From: Neptunicoccus sediminis
Lineage (GTDB): Bacteria > Pseudomonadota > Alphaproteobacteria > Rhodobacterales > Rhodobacteraceae
Direction: 5' to 3'
Length of the DNA stretch: 64,000 bases
Assembly (NCBI RefSeq): GCF_001719615.1
Contig: NZ_MDVX01000008.1
Span: 1-64,000, forward strand
Part shown: piece after piece, positions 56,431-64,000 of the stretch
Position numbering within the stretch: the first letter of the stretch is position 1
Layout of the letters: every line of letters starts with the position of its first letter
Notes under the pieces: generated by a model
What the model saw: the letters and a program-made list of their open reading frames with translations, nothing else
Databases searched by the model: none
What the model was told of the DNA's origin: nothing
Made by a program: the position numbers and the translations under genes

Positions 56431-57825
56431 TTATTGGGGATCAACCGGCAGGATGGCGGGACGGGCCGCCTCTATATCCCGTCCGGCCGCGATCAGAATA
56501 TCCTCGCGGTAGCGCCGCGCCAGCAGTTGCACGCCCATCGGTTTGCCTGCCGCCGAACCTGTTGCCACCGCCAGCCCCGGCAGGCCGAGCGCTGGCACCG
56601 CAACCTGTGTCAACTGCGCTTTCATAATCGCCGCAAAGCCTTCTGCCGATTGAACATCCGCCTGCTGGTCGAAGGGCAACATACCGGACACCGGACAGAT
56701 CAAAACGGAATGCTGCGCCAGAAATAACTGCCAGTCCCGCAGATGGGTGACACGATCCCGCAGCGCGTCGAGCAGTCCCGCTGCATCCACGGGGGCGGAC
56801 AAGGACTGCATCACGGAAAACACATGGCGGCTGTCCGGTTCATTCTCCTGTTCTACCATCCGGTCCACGCCCTGCCGCATCTCTGCCAGCCAGAGCTTGG
56901 CGTTAATATCAGCGGCGGGTTGCATCGGCGGGCAGTTGACTTCCTCTACCTCCCAGCCTGCATCTGCCAAATCCTTGGCCGCCCCGAGCAGGGCCGCTTC
57001 GATTTCCGGCGTTATCTCCATTCCATCTGGCCGCAGGCACAGGGCCGCACGGCGCGGGAAATCCCCCTGATCTATGGGGGCTGGCACATACCACGGATCG
57101 CGCAGGTCTTCTGCCGCCATAGCCCGCAGGCTAAGGTCGATGTCATCCATACTGCGTGCCAGCGGACCGCCGACGGCCATTAATTGCCCGCCGATATGCC
57201 GGTCTGGCCCCGAAGGATTATAGGCCGGCAACCGCCCCAGCGTGGGGCGCAGCCCGTGGATGCCACAGGCATAGGCAGGATAGCGGATCGACCCGCCAAT
57301 ATCCGTACCATGCCCGACCGCTGCCATGCCGCTGGCCACCGAAGACCCCGCCCCACCAGAAGAGCCACCGGGCGTGATGTGCTTTCCGTGGGGGTTCAGG
57401 GTTTGGCCGTGCAGGTCATTCTTGGTAAACCAGCGCAGGGAAAACGCCGGCGTATTGGTGCGTCCGACGATCACCGCGCCTGCCTTGCGCATATTTGCCA
57501 CAACGGGGCTGTCTTCTTCCGCTACAAGGTTTTCCAGCAGTTTCAGACCGTTGGTGGTCGCATGGCCGGTTTGATCTACATTCACTTTGATCGTCACCGG
57601 CACACCGGCCATCGACCCGACCTTTCGTCCGGCGGCAATGTCCGCGTCAATCGCAGCGGCTGCGGACAGCGCCTCCTCTGGCATATGTTGCACAACCGCG
57701 TTCAGCGCCGGATTGACCGCGTCGATCCGCTCCAGATGGGCCTTGGTCACTTCTGTGGCGGAAACTTCTTTGGCGCGGATTTTTGCAGCGATTTCGGTGG
57801 CGCTCAGGGTCCAGAGTTCAGACAT
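56431..57825 (-). CDS. Amidase (amidase-signature family)
   Basis: 464 residues. The Ser-cisSer-Lys triad is complete: Lys80 in VPVTIKVN, Ser155 in the GGSSGG signature (153-158) and nucleophile Ser179 in GTDIGGSIRYPA. The family hydrolyses amides, nitrile-derived amides or carbamates, or acts in indole-acetamide breakdown; substrate not readable. No membrane anchor or signal is seen, so cytoplasmic. It has GAGGAG upstream and is divergent from the small membrane-protein gene. Nearby amide-bond enzymes (ATP-grasp, C45-type) at 59.6-62.1 kb make an amide theme possible but not proven. Confidence 0.93.
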   Translation of the reverse strand: MSELWTLSATEIAAKIRAKEVSATEVTKAHLERIDAVNPALNAVVQHMPEEALSAAAAIDADIAAGRKVGSMAGVPVTIKVNVDQTGHATTNGLKLLENLVAEEDSPVVANMRKAGAVIVGRTNTPAFSLRWFTKNDLHGQTLNPHGKHITPGGSSGGAGSSVASGMAAVGHGTDIGGSIRYPAYACGIHGLRPTLGRLPAYNPSGPDRHIGGQLMAVGGPLARSMDDIDLSLRAMAAEDLRDPWYVPAPIDQGDFPRRAALCLRPDGMEITPEIEAALLGAAKDLADAGWEVEEVNCPPMQPAADINAKLWLAEMRQGVDRMVEQENEPDSRHVFSVMQSLSAPVDAAGLLDALRDRVTHLRDWQLFLAQHSVLICPVSGMLPFDQQADVQSAEGFAAIMKAQLTQVAVPALGLPGLAVATGSAAGKPMGVQLLARRYREDILIAAGRDIEAARPAILPVDPQ

Positions 57826-58332: not shown

Positions 58333-59655
58333 TCAGCCAAGCCCGACCGTTATCGCCCGTGACAGTTTGGCGACCAGTTCGTCAATCTGGGGGTCGGTGA
58401 TGATGAAAGGCGGGGCCAGCAGCACATGATCGCCGCTTTGCCCGTCGATGGTGCCGCCCATCGGATAACAGATCATGCCAGCCTCAAACGCCGCCGCTTT
58501 TATCCGCGCCGCTGTCTTGCGCTGAGGATCTAGCGGTGTCTTGCTCTGCCGGTCTGCCACCAGTTCGACACCCCAGAACAACCCGCGCCCGCGAATGTCG
58601 CCCACGTTCGGGTGGTCTGCAAACTCTGCCGTTAGCGCAGTGCGCAACTTATGGCCCTGCGTTTGCGCCGCAGTGACCAGATCCCGCGATTTCAGAGAGC
58701 GCAGGACAGCCACCCCCGCCGCTGCGGCGCAGGGATGGCCGATATAAGTGTGGCCGTGCTGGAAAAAACCGCTGCCCTGTTCGATCGTCCGGTAGATTTC
58801 CTTGCTGCACAGCATCGCGCCAATCGGCTGATAACCCGCGCCCAAACCCTTGGCGATACACAGTATATCCGGTGCCACCCCGTCCTGTTCACAGGCAAAC
58901 AGACTGCCGGTGCGCCCCATGCCGCACATGACTTCGTCCAGTATCAGTAGGATACCGTATTGATCGCAAATCTCACGGATACGCCTGAAATAGCCCTTCA
59001 CCGCAGGCACCGCACCGGCAGTGGCGCCCACCACAGGCTCGGCAATAAAGGCCATGACGGTTTCCGGCCCGACCCGCAGCAGTTCTTCTTCCAACAGATT
59101 GGCGGCACGAAGGCCATAGGCTTCCGCGCTCTCACCGTCCTGTTGCAGACGATAGGCATAACAGGGGTCGATATGGCTCATGTCGATCAGCAACGGACCG
59201 AATTGGGCACGCCGCCACGCATTGCCCCCTGCCGAAAGCGCCCCCATCGTGTTGCCATGATAGCTTTGCTTGCGGGCGATCAGACGCCCCCGCTGCGGTT
59301 CTCCTTTTTCGACGAAATACTGCCGCGCCAGTTTCAGCGCCGCCTCCACCGCTTCGGAGCCGCCGGACACAAGGTAGACACGGTCCAGATCACCGGGCGC
59401 CTGTTCGATCAGCAAATCCGCCAGCGTTTCAGCCGGTTCAGAGGTGAGAAACCCCGTGTGGGCATAGGCCAGACTATCCAATTGCGCCTTTACCGCCTCA
59501 ATCACGGTGCGGTCATTATGTCCCAGACAGGACACAGCCGCCCCACCCGAAGCATCAAGATACTGTTTGCCCTCTGCATCATAAAGATAACAACCTTCAC
59601 CGCGTACCGCGACGGGGGGGGACTGTTTTTTGTGGCGGGGAAAAATATGGGACAT
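58333..59655 (-). CDS. Class III PLP-dependent aminotransferase
   Basis: 440 residues of the class III (omega-aminotransferase) family. The start has YLYDAEGKQYLDASGGAAVSCLGH, the PLP phosphate cup VSGGSEAVEAALK (97-109), cofactor Asp240 in LILDEVMCGMGRTG, and the Schiff-base Lys269 in DILCIAKGLGAGYQP. Such enzymes move the terminal amino group of diamines, beta-alanine, taurine or amino acids to a keto acid. It is the last gene of a four-gene leftward operon (decarboxylase, ATP-grasp, C45-type, aminotransferase) and begins nine bases after the preceding stop, so it probably acts on the amine made by the decarboxylase or on a breakdown product of it. Confidence 0.94.
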   Translation of the reverse strand: MSHIFPRHKKQSPPVAVRGEGCYLYDAEGKQYLDASGGAAVSCLGHNDRTVIEAVKAQLDSLAYAHTGFLTSEPAETLADLLIEQAPGDLDRVYLVSGGSEAVEAALKLARQYFVEKGEPQRGRLIARKQSYHGNTMGALSAGGNAWRRAQFGPLLIDMSHIDPCYAYRLQQDGESAEAYGLRAANLLEEELLRVGPETVMAFIAEPVVGATAGAVPAVKGYFRRIREICDQYGILLILDEVMCGMGRTGSLFACEQDGVAPDILCIAKGLGAGYQPIGAMLCSKEIYRTIEQGSGFFQHGHTYIGHPCAAAAGVAVLRSLKSRDLVTAAQTQGHKLRTALTAEFADHPNVGDIRGRGLFWGVELVADRQSKTPLDPQRKTAARIKAAAFEAGMICYPMGGTIDGQSGDHVLLAPPFIITDPQIDELVAKLSRAITVGLG

Positions 59656-59664
59656 TTCAGGCTC

Positions 59665-60636
59665 CTAAGCAGCACCGGGAATTCTGACTCGCCGGCTCCC
59701 TTCGTTAAATTCGTCCATCGAAAAAGACCAGACCGTACCGGGCCAGCGCACTTCCATTTGTTGCAGTCGCGGGCGGTAAACGGCGGTGTATAGCGTGCCG
59801 AAGCCCGCATCGAAAGCTGTGGAATACAGTGGCGGTTTCAGAAACGCACCTATGAACTTTTCCTCCGGATCACGGTGCAGCGCCAGACGTTGCAACAAAA
59901 AGCGTTCCCGCTCCACCGTGGCGGTGAACCGTGCGTGGCTGACCCATTCCACGTGTTCCTGATGGTTGGTCGCAACTGCCGCATGGGTGATTACGGCGGG
60001 CCGGTCCGGAGCCATCATCGCCGTCAGATACTGGCGTTTTGCATCCAGCACAGTGACGTTATAGCTCATATGGGTGGGAATACGGGCCAGCGCCCTGCCC
60101 GCCTGTTCCGCTGTTTCGCAGGTCTGCAACACATAGCGCAGAATTAGTGGCACGCCAAAGCCGATGCCTACAACGCGCCGCCCGCCAAAGGTCAGGGATA
60201 TGGACAGGCCCGCATCATTGCAGCCGTCCACCATGCCCCACAGCCCGTCCGAGACCCCCATCACCCGCCGCCCCTGCCAGCCCGTGTGCAGGATCAGACT
60301 GTCAAACGCGGTGGGGTTGTAGTCGTAATTTCGCATCAGAACCGGCTCTTTTCCGGTCCAGATTGCCTGTGAACACCCTGCCAGATATGGCGGCGGGCAA
60401 TAAAAGCTGAGAAACCGCGCCACCTGATCACCACCGCCTGCAAGCTCACACAGATCGTCGTAGAGCGGGATGATTTCCGGCATATGCGTCGCGATTGCAC
60501 GCCGGCTCTCCAGATAGCTCGGCCTTGCGCTGTCCCCTTCCTGAAGCCACCAGTTTTTGTAATCGGGCCAGTATTCGTTGAACAGCCCGGACCATTTCGG
60601 ACCGGGCTGTTCTTCACGGATTGCACGCCAGTACAT
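59665..60636 (-). CDS. C45-family acyltransferase / N-terminal nucleophile hydrolase-like
   Basis: 323 residues. The segment YLAGCSQAIW with Cys88 fits the autocatalytic cleavage site of the C45 family (acyl-CoA:6-aminopenicillanic acid acyltransferase and related linear-amide C-N hydrolases), where the Cys becomes the new N-terminal nucleophile after cleavage of the Gly-Cys bond. Downstream LMRNYDYNPTAFDSLIL, the NDAGLSISLTFGG segment and ATNHQEHVEW are typical of the fold. Members transfer an acyl group to an amine or hydrolyse an amide. It lies 8 bases after the ATP-grasp gene, so synthesis and processing of an amide are likely linked. Confidence 0.82.
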   Translation of the reverse strand: MYWRAIREEQPGPKWSGLFNEYWPDYKNWWLQEGDSARPSYLESRRAIATHMPEIIPLYDDLCELAGGGDQVARFLSFYCPPPYLAGCSQAIWTGKEPVLMRNYDYNPTAFDSLILHTGWQGRRVMGVSDGLWGMVDGCNDAGLSISLTFGGRRVVGIGFGVPLILRYVLQTCETAEQAGRALARIPTHMSYNVTVLDAKRQYLTAMMAPDRPAVITHAAVATNHQEHVEWVSHARFTATVERERFLLQRLALHRDPEEKFIGAFLKPPLYSTAFDAGFGTLYTAVYRPRLQQMEVRWPGTVWSFSMDEFNEGSRRVRIPGAA

Positions 60637-60644
60637 GGCTTTCC

Positions 60645-62102
60645 TTACAAAATCTTGAACGCGGGCTCTGCCACGGCGGGACCGGCATCAGCCACCGGCA
60701 GCGCCTTGCCGTTCACGGATTGCTTGATACCATGAATCCACTTTTTCGCACGCTCGTTCAACTGGAACCCTTTGGTCATAGAGCGCCCCCTTGTCACCAG
60801 AATACCGATGTCCGCGCCTTCATAGCGATAGTCGCCCGGTTGCAGGATACGCAGGAAAAACGCTTCGTTTTCGCTCTCAACCGCGCGGCGGTGATAGTCG
60901 AACCGGTCGAAGACAACGCGGCCGTCTTCCAACATCTTGTAAATTCCGGTTTCCGGTGCATCCGTGCAGATGTCCACGCTGTCATCGGTATGTTTGATCA
61001 CCATCTGCGACCAGCTGTCGATCATGTCGGGATCGGCCCAGCGGTTGTTCAGCTCTTCCGTGTCGAGATCGAACTTCTTGCGGGAAAATTCCAGCAGGTG
61101 GAACAGGAACAAGGGCGCATCCGCATGGGCAAAGGCTGCGTGGTTGGTCATCGACGACGCCCCTGTGATCCGCGGATTTAATTCCCCGAGCCACAAATCG
61201 CCGGTCTTTTTGTCGATCAGGAAGTCCAGTTCGAAATAGCCGCGATAGCCTTCCTTGCGCAGTTGCTCCCCGAACTTGAAGGTCAGTTCCCGGGCCTTTT
61301 CCCGCACTTTTGGCGGAAAGGCGGTGGAGAGGATTTCATTGCCGCACCAGCCACCGCGATAGGGCGTCAGTTCGTCAAAGCCCACAAGTTCTGTCATCAG
61401 CGGGCCAACGATCGTGCCTTCTTTGGTGGCACAGCCCTCAATCGCAGAGCCACGGCAATCGATGCGCTTCATGATCTTGATCTCGCCCTCTCCGACGATT
61501 TCATGTTCATGACGGCGAAAGTCAGCCTCGTTCTTGATAAAAAATGTCGTGTGGCCGCTATCGCCAAAGGCGGATTGCAGCACCAGATCATGGCCAAGCT
61601 TGGCTTTTTCGCAAGTCTTGCGCAGGTCGTCGTAATCTTTCACCTCGGCCAGCACATTTGGCACAGACGGCACGCCCGCCTTGTTGCCGATCCGCACGGT
61701 TTCGATCTTATTGTCCATCTTGGTGCGCAATTTGGCCTTGGGGAACCACACATCCGCGCCCAGTTCTTTGGACAGACGTTCGGTTTCCTCGTCAAACATC
61801 AGAAAGACGAATTTCGGCTTGCCACCGCGCCGTTTGATAAAGTCGATGACCTCTTTGTGCTGCAGCAGATAGTTGTTGATGTCCTCAATGCTTTGAAATT
61901 CCGCATGGGGCTGTTCGGAGGGGCAGAAGACATTCGGATGCTTTCCGCCATAACAGTCTATGTAGCAGATATATTTGAAGTTTTTGACCCATTCATCCAG
62001 ACCGAGCAGATTGAAGTTGGTTGCCGAAATAAAATAAATCGGGTCTTCGTTTCTATGAAAGAAGCGCCGGATTTCAGAGATGTTTTTGAGAACTGTCGCC
62101 AT
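60645..62102 (-). CDS. ATP-grasp family carboxylate-amine ligase-like protein
   Basis: 485 residues. ATP-grasp marks: the KMDNKIETVRIGNKAGVPSVPN segment (128-149) resembling the DK...AG motif before the B domain, LVLQSAFGDSGHTTFF (ATP-binding loop), and metal ligands in GYFELDFL (Glu291, Asp293) and LGELNPRITGASSMTN (Glu307, Asn309). The fold is that of biotin carboxylase and D-Ala-D-Ala ligase relatives, which join a carboxylate to an amine or thiol through an acyl phosphate. No biotin-carrier gene is near, so amide ligation is more likely than carboxylation. It is 14 bases after the decarboxylase gene. Confidence 0.88.
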   Translation of the reverse strand: MATVLKNISEIRRFFHRNEDPIYFISATNFNLLGLDEWVKNFKYICYIDCYGGKHPNVFCPSEQPHAEFQSIEDINNYLLQHKEVIDFIKRRGGKPKFVFLMFDEETERLSKELGADVWFPKAKLRTKMDNKIETVRIGNKAGVPSVPNVLAEVKDYDDLRKTCEKAKLGHDLVLQSAFGDSGHTTFFIKNEADFRRHEHEIVGEGEIKIMKRIDCRGSAIEGCATKEGTIVGPLMTELVGFDELTPYRGGWCGNEILSTAFPPKVREKARELTFKFGEQLRKEGYRGYFELDFLIDKKTGDLWLGELNPRITGASSMTNHAAFAHADAPLFLFHLLEFSRKKFDLDTEELNNRWADPDMIDSWSQMVIKHTDDSVDICTDAPETGIYKMLEDGRVVFDRFDYHRRAVESENEAFFLRILQPGDYRYEGADIGILVTRGRSMTKGFQLNERAKKWIHGIKQSVNGKALPVADAGPAVAEPAFKIL

Positions 62103-62116
62103 AGTATTGTCCTTTA

Positions 62117-64000
62117 TTATTCGGCTGCGGTTTGAATGGTTTTTTCTGCGGTAAGATTTGCGAGGGCTTCCTGTGTGAATACGCGCAGGCCCAGATCGGC
62201 GCGGTAGCCGTGGATTTCGTTCACATCCAATGCGCGCATGAAATCAAGGATTTCACGGCTGATAACCTGTCCGGGAACAAGGATCGGAAAGCCCGGCGGA
62301 TAGGGGATGATAAAGCTGGCGGAAACCAGTTCCTTGCCCGTCTCCATCGCCGCCTTCAATGATCCGTCCAATTCGAGATAATCGCAATTCTTCTCATCAT
62401 AGCTAAGGTAATAGGCTTTGCGAATATCCCCTTCGGGGGTCAGGTTATCGGGCCGGAACCCGTCGTGGAAACGGCTGAAGTCCGGCAGCGGCGGGTAGTT
62501 TTCCGTCAGGTTTGCCACACGGCGGTCAAAGGCCAGACGCTCCATCTTTGACGCATCATCCAGCAGGTCGTCCAATTCATTGGCGATCTCCACCAGCACT
62601 TCGATCAGATAGGCCACCGAAGACCGTGTGGTGCCGATATTGGTCATGAACAACACGGTATTGCGCGAGGTTTTGTTGATCTGGATGCCGTATTTGTCCA
62701 TCAACACCTGATTTTTGAACGTATCTCCGTCCCATCCGGTGCCGCCCACAGCCAATGTCACACGGGTGGCGTCCAGCACGAAATCGTCCCGCTCCCAACA
62801 CTCCCACAGGTCGGTCCAGCCCTGTTCCGTGTCAACATAACTGCTCACACCGCTCTGACGATAGCTTTCGGGGATCATGTCCCCCGCTGTCAGCACCTTA
62901 AAGTATTTTTGCAGCATCGGATGGCTGCTGATGGCGCGGCGCAGGGCCATTGCGGCCTCTATCTGGCGCTGGACGAACTCGAACCCTTCCAATTCCACCT
63001 GCCGCCGCCCCACATCAAGCGAGGCGATGATCTGGTAATTGGGTGAGGTGGATGTATGGGTCATATAGGCTTCGTGAAAGCTCTGCTCTACCTCTCCCTT
63101 AAAGTCCTGATCGTTGACATGGATCATCGACCCCTGCCGCAAGGATGTCAGGGTTTTATGGGTGGATTGCGTGGCATAGGCCCTGACCCGCGCCGTGGGC
63201 GGCGGGATGAGCCGCGTGTTCAGCAGCTCTTCGTCGCTGGCGTTTTCCAGTTGTTTTTGCTGGGCTTTATAGGCATCCAGATGCTGTTCCGTGCGCAGGC
63301 GCTTGCGCATGTTATTGGCCGAACGCATCGCCGTGCGCTGGCGGTAGGTGGGGCTGAAACGGGCAAATGCGAACCATGCCTCGTCCCAGAGGAACACAAG
63401 GTCCGGTTTGATCGCCAGACATTCCTCCATCACCCGCTGCACGTTGTAGACCAGCCCGTCAAAGGTACAGTTCGTCAGCAGCAGCATCCGCACCCGATCC
63501 AGCTTGCCCGCCGCCTTGAGAGCAAGAAGCTGGTGTTTGATTTCTCGCAAAGGCACGGCGCCATACATTGAATATTCGTTGAGCGGATAACTGTCGAGAT
63601 AGACCACCTCGGCCCCTGCCAGCACCATCCCGTAGTGGTGGGATTTGTGACAGTCCCGGTCCACCAGAACAATATCACCGGGGCGCACCAGCGCCTGCAC
63701 GACAATCTTGTTGCAGGTAGAGGTGCCGTTGGTGGCAAAAAACGTCTGCTTTGATCCGAATGCGCGGCTGGCCAGTTCCTGCGCCTTCTTGATCGGGCCG
63801 CTGGGTTCCAGCAAACTGTCGAGCCCGCCCGAAGTGGCCGAGGTTTCCGCCAAAAAGATGTTCGGGCCGTAAAACGCCCCCATATCCTGAATCCAGTGGG
63901 AGCGGCTGATGGATTTGCCACGGCTGATTGGCATAGCGTGGAAAACGCCGGTGGGCTGCTTGGAATACTCCACCAGCGCTGTGAAAAACGGGGATTTATT
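62117..64000 (-). CDS. Orn/Lys/Arg decarboxylase family protein, N-terminus cut by window edge
   Basis: The frame is open to the right end of the window (first visible residues NKSPFFTALVEYSKQ), so the N-terminal part is missing; 627 residues plus a stop codon are seen. It is a fold-type I PLP enzyme of the Orn/Lys/Arg decarboxylase group: MPISRGKSIS and NGTSTCNKIVVQALVRPGD early, WDEAWFAF in the middle, and the cofactor motif STHKTLTSLRQGS with the PLP Lys codon at 63155-63157. The C-terminal domain has IPYPPGFPILVPGQVIS. It should form an amine by decarboxylating a basic amino acid, though some members of this family act on other amino acids. First gene visible of the four-gene leftward operon. 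Confidence 0.92.
   Translation of the reverse strand, partial: NKSPFFTALVEYSKQPTGVFHAMPISRGKSISRSHWIQDMGAFYGPNIFLAETSATSGGLDSLLEPSGPIKKAQELASRAFGSKQTFFATNGTSTCNKIVVQALVRPGDIVLVDRDCHKSHHYGMVLAGAEVVYLDSYPLNEYSMYGAVPLREIKHQLLALKAAGKLDRVRMLLLTNCTFDGLVYNVQRVMEECLAIKPDLVFLWDEAWFAFARFSPTYRQRTAMRSANNMRKRLRTEQHLDAYKAQQKQLENASDEELLNTRLIPPPTARVRAYATQSTHKTLTSLRQGSMIHVNDQDFKGEVEQSFHEAYMTHTSTSPNYQIIASLDVGRRQVELEGFEFVQRQIEAAMALRRAISSHPMLQKYFKVLTAGDMIPESYRQSGVSSYVDTEQGWTDLWECWERDDFVLDATRVTLAVGGTGWDGDTFKNQVLMDKYGIQINKTSRNTVLFMTNIGTTRSSVAYLIEVLVEIANELDDLLDDASKMERLAFDRRVANLTENYPPLPDFSRFHDGFRPDNLTPEGDIRKAYYLSYDEKNCDYLELDGSLKAAMETGKELVSASFIIPYPPGFPILVPGQVISREILDFMRALDVNEIHGYRADLGLRVFTQEALANLTAEKTIQTAAE

What the first reader, a model, noticed from the sequence alone, without database searches (positions are those of the whole stretch)
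59665..64000. Four-gene decarboxylase / ATP-grasp / C45-type / aminotransferase operon of unknown product
Four leftward genes with gaps of 14, 8 and 9 bases encode an Orn/Lys/Arg-type PLP decarboxylase, an ATP-grasp ligase without biotin partner, a Cys-nucleophile acyltransferase/hydrolase and (to 58333) a class III aminotransferase. Seen: motifs and spacing. Known: such families make amines, ligate carboxylate to amine, transfer or cleave acyl groups and transaminate amines. Inference: together they could build or recycle an amide conjugate of a polyamine or amino acid, a route not known to me by name. The ATP-grasp and C45-type steps have opposite or complementary amide chemistry, which is the striking part.
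Basis: partly seen in the sequence, partly recalled or inferred. Interest (0 to 1): 0.75.

Follow-up and report, generated by a model that had tools for sequence, protein, structure and literature searches.

The report
Conserved four-enzyme amine-processing gene module
A small set of neighbouring bacterial genes (a decarboxylase, an amide-making enzyme and two amide-cutting enzymes) keeps travelling together, often beside genes for breaking down amino compounds or the salt-protectant ectoine, which suggests an undescribed way of processing amines; the actual compound is not known.

Summary
The four genes and their gaps (14, 8, 9 bases) are real, but the unit was drawn wrongly. The conserved core is nitrilase (just outside the window), OKR-type decarboxylase (DEC), ATP-grasp (GRASP), C45 hydrolase: in 80 named relatives DEC precedes GRASP in 80/80, C45 follows in 79/79 and the nitrilase precedes DEC in 77/77 with room; the aminotransferase follows in only 27/76. 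In distant genomes the core mostly persists, often reordered or lacking one gene. In one probable halophile family 28 of 29 loci lie inside the ectoine-degradation operon. Other neighbours include GABA transaminase, a PuuR-like regulator, agmatinase. GRASP is publicly labelled 'biotin carboxylase' but shows no biotin-carboxylase N/C domains. DEC belongs to the Rv2531c family, activity unknown. Best explanation (0.4): a protect-oxidise-deprotect amine pathway working like E. coli Puu with an unrelated ligase and hydrolase; substrate and acyl donor not shown. A PanD-replacement role was tested in the halophile family and not supported. Ten paper searches and the passages seen did not describe the module. 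New variant of a known kind; interest 0.6.

The parts
62117..64000 (-). PLP-dependent OKR-type decarboxylase (DEC), C-terminal 627 aa inside the window; full gene 913 aa runs to contig base 64858
   Evidence: PF01276 257 bits, PF03711 25 bits on the 627-aa part; closest solved relative Rv2531c, 9n0n/9n0o, E 7e-247; H404, D492, K568 invariant in 23 sequences, gaps in up to 3 allowed
60645..62102 (-). ATP-grasp ligase (GRASP), NF005096/PRK06524, labelled 'biotin carboxylase' in public records
   Evidence: NF005096 752 bits over cut-off 684; weak profile match to the ATP-grasp part of carboxylases and CPSase; D293, E307, N309, R311 invariant in 25 sequences, gaps in up to 3 allowed
59665..60636 (-). 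C45 autoproteolytic acyltransferase/hydrolase (C45), predicted nucleophile Cys88
58333..59655 (-). class III aminotransferase (AT3), NF005685/PRK07483: accessory, not core
   Evidence: 769.6 bits, cut-off 485; follows C45 in 27 of 76 named loci, one of them a short fragment and one cut by the contig end

Best explanation
The window holds part of a conserved amine-processing module: nitrilase, decarboxylase, ATP-grasp ligase, C45 hydrolase. Shown: the genes, their conservation, co-inheritance, intact catalytic residues and surroundings. Inferred mechanism: DEC makes a diamine-like compound from a basic amino acid (arginine/agmatine-like in some settings, possibly 2,4-diaminobutyrate where ectoine is degraded). 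GRASP uses ATP to put a carboxylic acid (glutamate is my guess) on one amine. A transaminase (AT3 here, possibly DoeD or others elsewhere) and an aldehyde dehydrogenase turn the free end into an acid. C45 removes the acyl group, giving an omega-amino acid such as GABA for the GABA transaminase and succinate-semialdehyde dehydrogenase. The nitrilase would cut a second amide or repair transaminated acyl-amides. This works like the E. coli Puu pathway (PuuA-PuuB-PuuC-PuuD-PuuE, recalled), but the ligase and the hydrolase belong to unrelated families.
For: C45 follows GRASP in 79/79, DEC precedes it in 80/80, nitrilase precedes DEC in 77/77 named loci with room (judged from alignment positions). 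Distances of the four proteins correlate, Spearman 0.79-0.93 over 120-300 locus pairs (pairs not independent). Catalytic residues invariant in 19-25 sequences. A GABA transaminase gene upstream on the same strand in 34 of 74 named loci; the copy scanned, in L033, passes TIGR00700 (543 bits, cut-off 507). Where at least 900 bases lie before it, a divergent PuuR-like XRE-cupin gene is there in 19 of 20 loci (the scanned copy scores 135.6 bits, below cut-off 211). SSADH-family gene in 3 of 80. In family f51, 28 of 29 modules lie between doeX and doeC-doeD, an aldehyde dehydrogenase and a diamine transaminase. On the Shinella and XES5 plasmids GRASP-C45 follows an aldehyde dehydrogenase gene in a putative D-arginine catabolic operon (annotations). 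Agmatinase-family genes, over cut-off, near the core in L109 and L129, with Pot-like transporter genes in L109 (below cut-offs).
Against: No activity is known for any member; acyl donor and amine are guesses. GABA transaminase, SSADH and the PuuR-like gene are not in the window or the 20 kb around the module. An aldehyde dehydrogenase is not in the window operon and is rare beside the Rhodobacterales loci. The aminotransferase is absent in 49 of 76. The nitrilase has no required place in a Puu-like scheme. DEC is absent in L034, L135, L132 and L162; the nitrilase is absent in L121, L123, L162 and the three Rhizobium/Sinorhizobium loci fetched. In L120 C45 lies on the opposite strand from GRASP, and in L162 C45 comes before GRASP. 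The ectoine setting and the arginine/GABA setting point to different substrates.
Confidence: 0.4

Rival explanations
1. Storage or signal amide: GRASP makes a stable amide of an amine (like carnosine-type dipeptides or the osmolyte N-acetylglutaminylglutamine amide, both recalled) and C45 and the nitrilase recycle it.
For: Ligase and hydrolase are adjacent in all 79 named loci with room; in f51 the module lies in the operon for the osmolyte ectoine; many hosts bear names of marine genera (inferred from names).
Against: Surroundings are often catabolic: GABA transaminase, agmatinase, D-arginine and ectoine breakdown genes. The analogies are recalled, not tested.
Confidence: 0.2
2. Uptake and breakdown of a preformed amide (acylated or peptidyl amine): C45 and the nitrilase open two amide bonds, DEC and the aminotransferase process the freed amino acid, and GRASP serves a side step.
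For: Many loci carry a transporter: TAXI-TRAP in 40 of 71, oligopeptide-type ABC in Roseobacter ponti (annotation) and Rhizobium (scores below cut-off), amidase genes in some.
Against: A purely hydrolytic pathway does not explain why an ATP-consuming ligase is C45's constant partner here. Transporter types differ from locus to locus.
Confidence: 0.15
3. DEC is an oxidative decarboxylase that turns a basic amino acid into an amide, which the nitrilase hydrolyses to an omega-amino acid (the logic of lysine and arginine 2-monooxygenase pathways, recalled).
For: Nitrilase directly before DEC in 77 of 77 named loci with room; GABA transaminase near many; DEC carries an extra stretch, about 45 residues against 7 in AdiA, between the motifs of D492 and K568.
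Against: Does not explain GRASP and C45. The fold family normally decarboxylates to amines (established knowledge). L121 and L123 keep DEC with no nitrilase in the 20 kb fetched.
Confidence: 0.12
4. Unrelated housekeeping genes lying together by chance.
For: Each single family is common, and public records give routine names.
Against: DEC is in 57 of 59 GRASP genomes and GRASP in 57 of 58 DEC genomes; conserved adjacency and shuffled order in several families.
Confidence: 0.01

Closest known systems
Puu pathway (E. coli gamma-glutamylated putrescine route; recalled)
   Same: By inference: an ATP-driven amide ligase and an amide hydrolase bracket amine oxidation. A GABA transaminase is near in 34 of 74 loci and a PuuR-like regulator in 22 of 80.
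   Different: Ligase is ATP-grasp, not glutamine-synthetase-like; hydrolase is C45 (Ntn), not C26; a decarboxylase and a nitrilase are added; no ALDH in the window operon; substrate unknown.
Ectoine degradation operon doeABX-doeCD (PMC3187862, passages seen)
   Same: In 28 of 29 f51 loci the module lies inside this operon.
   Different: H. elongata has doeX next to doeC without the module; the window's own doeA is on another contig.
Rv2531c 'probable amino acid decarboxylase' (PDB 9n0n, 9n0o)
   Same: Aligned over residues 42-906 of 913, E 7e-247, sharing the long stretch between the Asp and Lys motifs.
   Different: Its activity is unknown according to PMC12910592 (passages); its gene surroundings were not examined.
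Isopenicillin N acyltransferase / NAAA / acid ceramidase (C45 and related Ntn hydrolases)
   Different: About 12-14% identity; nothing in the neighbourhood suggests a penicillin or lipid substrate.
AruI-type D-arginine catabolism to GABA (plasmids L034, L135)
   Same: GRASP, C45 and a nitrilase share the locus and may serve the same arginine-derived products (inference).
   Different: There DEC is absent and a gene annotated 5-guanidino-2-oxopentanoate decarboxylase is present.

Membership tests
OKR (Orn/Lys/Arg) decarboxylases, fold type I | OKR_DC_1 and C-terminal domains over cut-off; PLP lysine in the STHK motif | tested here: met
   (K568, D492, H404 invariant in 23 sequences)
OKR (Orn/Lys/Arg) decarboxylases, fold type I | Decarboxylation of Orn, Lys or Arg | not testable with these tools
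   The 627-aa window part scores far below NCBIfam cut-offs for LdcC, AdiA, SpeF; the closest solved relative is of unknown activity
ATP-grasp ligases | ATP-grasp domain with Mg-binding Asp/Glu-x-Asn residues (motif recalled) | tested here: met
   D293, E307, N309 invariant in 25 sequences; profile match to the ATP-grasp part of carboxylases, E 7e-6; Pfam CPSase_L_D2 over cut-off in 2 of 7 members scanned. My structure model was unusable (pLDDT 38)
Biotin carboxylase (public label) | Biotin-carboxylase N- and C-terminal domains; Glu after the N-x-R-I-x-V motif that acts on bicarbonate (recalled) | tested here: not met
   Neither domain listed in 7 members scanned at E 1 (HMMER filters can miss very weak matches); by ungapped extension of the alignment the Glu position is Ala315, invariant in the 7 sequences of A1. 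Weak similarity to carboxylase models exists
C45 autoproteolytic acyltransferase/hydrolase | Family model over cut-off; cleavage-site Cys; Ntn fold | tested here: met
   NF040521 176 bits against 85; Cys88 invariant; fold match
Nitrilase superfamily (contig 64921-65958) | CN_hydrolase domain, Glu-Lys-Cys triad | tested here: met
   PF00795 100.8 bits; E65, K132, C165 invariant in 19 sequences
Puu pathway | PuuA: glutamine-synthetase-type ligase | tested here: not met
   GRASP shows no glutamine-synthetase domain
Puu pathway | PuuD: class I GATase-like C26 hydrolase | tested here: not met
   C45 is AAT/Ntn
Puu pathway | PuuE-like GABA transaminase and PuuR-like regulator in the locus | tested here: inconclusive
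   GABT in 34 of 74, PuuR-like in 22 of 80 named loci, the regulator below cut-off; neither found in the window or the 20 kb around its module
Ectoine degradation operon | doeA, doeB in the same cluster | tested here: not met
   Not in the window's locus, whose genome has doeA on contig C67; met in 28 of 29 f51 loci

The most novel reading that the evidence does not exclude
Proteobacteria independently invented a second protect-oxidise-deprotect route for amines, built from an Rv2531c-type decarboxylase, an ATP-grasp ligase, an Ntn amide hydrolase and a nitrilase; as a portable cassette it was inserted into the ectoine-degradation operon of halophiles, where it diverts 2,4-diaminobutyrate (or the gamma-acetyl dead-end product of ectoine hydrolysis) into a new branch of ectoine catabolism.
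Probability: 0.22. Interest if true: 0.8.

Novelty: new variant of a known kind. Interest (0 to 1): 0.6.

Why it matters
The operon would give a function to families that now carry wrong or empty names: PRK06524 'biotin carboxylase', a C45 subgroup, and the decarboxylase family that includes a solved structure without known activity. Its place inside the ectoine operon makes the question testable in cultivable halophiles, and an ectoine review (PMC5924519, passage) states an open problem, the fate of gamma-acetyl-diaminobutyrate, on which such amidase genes could bear.

Tried and rejected
Beta-alanine supply in place of PanD: in 121 f51 genomes panD is in 21 of 29 module carriers and 42 of 92 others (Fisher p 0.018), the opposite of replacement. 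The window's own genome has no panD hit, so a beta-alanine role is not excluded there.

GRASP structure: AlphaFold model pLDDT 38, discarded, no fold search run on it.

S. meliloti SMa0680-SMa0684: passages name two Lys/Orn/Arg decarboxylases and an antiporter there; I did not compare these genes with the module by sequence, and the passages name no ATP-grasp or C45 gene.

Is the module described already? Ten paper searches gave listings and abstracts, and term searches in nine papers gave passages; none described it. In PMC13188858 the words decarboxylase, biotin and C45 do not occur in the main text; in PMC5924519 decarboxylase, biotin and nitrilase do not, and its list of undefined genes in ectoine clusters (figure legend) does not hold these. 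PMC2922099 treats other operons with ATP-grasp and Ntn transacylase genes. I read no paper whole; supplements and most subscription journals were not available.

C45 homologues without GRASP: of 106 plasmid records with a C45 match I looked at two outside the module, Sulfitobacter pontiacus and S. meliloti (44% and 39% identity); their neighbours are unrelated, so C45 alone does not mark the module.

A first gap count for nitrilase-DEC gave 41 of 77 and for DEC-GRASP 77 of 80 because my start-codon routine failed on some loci; recounted from alignment positions they are 77 of 77 and 80 of 80.
Full report
OBSERVATION. The four leftward genes exist at the stated places with gaps of 14, 8 and 9 bases. 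The decarboxylase continues beyond the window to contig base 64858. Upstream in the same direction follow a nitrilase (contig 64921-65958), a 143-aa protein that I call UspA-like from recall of such sequences (no NCBIfam hit), a fused TRAP permease, a TAXI binding protein and a LysR regulator, then a divergent Pot-like ABC transporter with scores below cut-offs. Below the aminotransferase lies an amidase (56431-57825).

WHAT IS CONSERVED. A scan of named genomes gave 493 loci with a relative of the ATP-grasp protein, of which the tool keeps the best 80 (89% or more identical), so this set is close kin. In these 80, counting only loci with enough sequence on that side and judging adjacency from alignment positions, DEC precedes GRASP in 80 of 80, C45 follows in 79 of 79, and the nitrilase precedes DEC in 77 of 77. 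The aminotransferase follows in 27 of 76 (one a short fragment, one cut by a contig end), TRAP is upstream in 40 of 71, a GABA transaminase in 34 of 74. The aminotransferase goes with TRAP (23 both, 14 TRAP only, 1 aminotransferase only, 30 neither; related genomes, so the p value is not independent). So the unit is nitrilase-DEC-GRASP-C45, and the aminotransferase is an extra.

CO-OCCURRENCE. In 292 genomes of the order, GRASP is in 59 (28 of 112 genera), DEC in 58, both in 57. The one DEC-only genome has a 49% paralogue; two further genomes carry such a paralogue besides the module copy. In 398 genomes of the phylum GRASP is in 11, in 289 of the class in 8 (some genomes shared between the draws). 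I fetched 14 distant loci. Of these L119, L127, L128 and L129 keep the order; L122, L124 and L125 have nitrilase-GRASP-C45-DEC; L120 has C45 and nitrilase divergent from DEC-GRASP; L121 and L123 lack the nitrilase; L132 lacks DEC; L126 and L130 are cut by contig ends; L131 has a truncated GRASP with C45 and no DEC or nitrilase. Of the six plasmid loci first fetched, L033 and L038 have all four, L034 lacks DEC, and L035, L036 and L037 lack the nitrilase. Pairwise distances of the four proteins correlate over up to 25 loci, Spearman 0.79-0.93.

PROTEINS. DEC is closest to Rv2531c (9n0n, E 7e-247), then to arginine (6e-62), lysine (3e-54) and ornithine (3e-30) decarboxylases. It has about 45 residues where AdiA has 7, between the DEAW motif and the THK motif. 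A review states that the Rv2531c structure paper did not clarify the activity (PMC12910592, passages; the structure paper itself is not held). GRASP passes NF005096, called 'biotin carboxylase', but in 7 members neither biotin-carboxylase N nor C domain is listed even at E 1; the shared CPSase_L_D2 ATP-binding domain is over cut-off in 2 of 7, and the ATP-grasp residues are invariant. C45 models as an isopenicillin-N-acyltransferase-like Ntn hydrolase with Cys88 at the nucleophile position. The nitrilase has an intact triad and no close named family.

SURROUNDINGS. (1) Ectoine: in family f51 GRASP is in 29 of 121 genomes. I had all 29 loci (2, 27). In 28 the order is doeB-doeX-nitrilase-GRASP-C45-DEC-doeC-doeD, with doeA in 27 pieces and just beyond the piece in the 28th. 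The exception, L162, has a GRASP below cut-off, preceded by C45 and an amidase-like gene, with no DEC, nitrilase or doe gene found in the 12 kb piece. doeX-nitrilase gaps are 120-7371 bases and DEC-doeC gaps 169-2896, so a few loci hold an insertion. doeA is in 103 of 121 genomes, so 75 doeA genomes lack the module. H. elongata has doeX next to doeC (PMC3187862, passages). In one Rhodobacterales MAG (L089) doeD-doeB-doeA lie next to the aminotransferase on the other strand. The doe names were checked with NCBIfam in L125. (2) GABA: the transaminase scanned (L033) passes TIGR00700. Of 34 loci with it, 20 have at least 900 bases before it, and 19 of these 20 show a divergent XRE-cupin gene whose best model is PuuR, below cut-off. 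SSADH lies downstream in 3 of 80. None of these three is found in the window or the 20 kb around its module. (3) Arginine: plasmids recorded as Roseateles sp. XES5 and Shinella zoogloeoides place GRASP-C45 after genes annotated agmatinase, 5-guanidino-2-oxopentanoate decarboxylase and aldehyde dehydrogenase, and before a D-amino-acid dehydrogenase and a racemase (with an arginase-family domain in the XES5 copy scanned), with a nitrilase gene nearby on the other strand. Agmatinase-family genes lie next to C45 in L109 and one gene away from the nitrilase in L129. (4) Glutamate, circumstantial: a glutamate-synthase-family gene on the opposite strand in 31 of 70 named loci with full upstream sequence, and glutamate/aspartate-type transporter genes after C45 in Cupriavidus L038, below cut-offs. 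(5) Rhizobium leguminosarum Vaf10 has DEC, a small hypothetical gene, GRASP and C45 beside nifHDKEN.

MECHANISM. A ligase and an amide hydrolase that I found in the same locus wherever there was room, next to a decarboxylase that should make amines and, in many loci, to GABA or diamine degradation genes, fit best with temporary acylation of an amine: ligate, oxidise, cleave. That is the logic of Puu. Membership in Puu fails because ligase and hydrolase are of other families. The weak points are the missing aldehyde dehydrogenase in most Rhodobacterales loci, the unexplained nitrilase, and two different substrate hints. I give 0.4. The rivals are a storage or signal amide (0.2), breakdown of an imported amide (0.15) and an oxidative DEC making an amide (0.12).

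TEST THAT WENT AGAINST AN IDEA. If the module supplied beta-alanine in place of PanD, carriers should lack panD; in f51 they have it more often (21 of 29 against 42 of 92). The window's genome does lack panD.

NOVELTY. Ten paper searches and the passages named in Tried and rejected showed no description of the module; supplements and most subscription papers were not available. I file it as a new variant of a known kind: known enzyme families and a known pathway logic in a new, conserved, portable combination.

Noticed in passing
window 60645-62102 and plasmid records H1, H4, H5, H8: The label 'biotin carboxylase' for PRK06524 proteins is very likely wrong; it is carried in many of the annotated plasmid records.
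   Followed up: yes
L035 (Rhizobium leguminosarum Vaf10): DEC, GRASP and C45 with an oligopeptide-type ABC transporter and an amidase directly beside nifHDKEN; some clover rhizobia and S. medicae plasmids show partial, apparently decayed copies.
   Followed up: partly
L034:15801-17588 and L135:15782-17569: A 595-aa protein annotated as alanine racemase; in the L034 copy an alanine-racemase N domain is followed by an arginase-family domain (the L135 copy was not scanned), in a putative D-arginine operon.
   Followed up: partly
L132:8295-12772: Second, DEC-less GRASP-C45-nitrilase set in a genome that also has a GRASP-DEC pair, preceded by a PRK05665-like amidotransferase (below cut-off), with ABC transporter genes on the other strand.
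   Followed up: no
G109, G140, G155: A DEC paralogue at 49-50% identity, elsewhere in the genome in G109 and G140 and as the only DEC copy in G155; its neighbours were not looked at.
   Followed up: no
window 56431-57825: Amidase of the PRK07487 subfamily below the aminotransferase; at high identity (93%) it is seen next to the module only in the two closest relatives L039 and L040.
   Followed up: partly
L131:9517-11243: GRASP reduced to its C-terminal part (217 aa) while C45 and a divergent aminotransferase remain: a module in decay.
   Followed up: no
contig G000:C64 71703-75739 (beyond the window): Divergent Pot-like ABC transporter operon next to the LysR gene; within the flanks fetched, only L040 of 80 named loci shows it.
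   Followed up: partly
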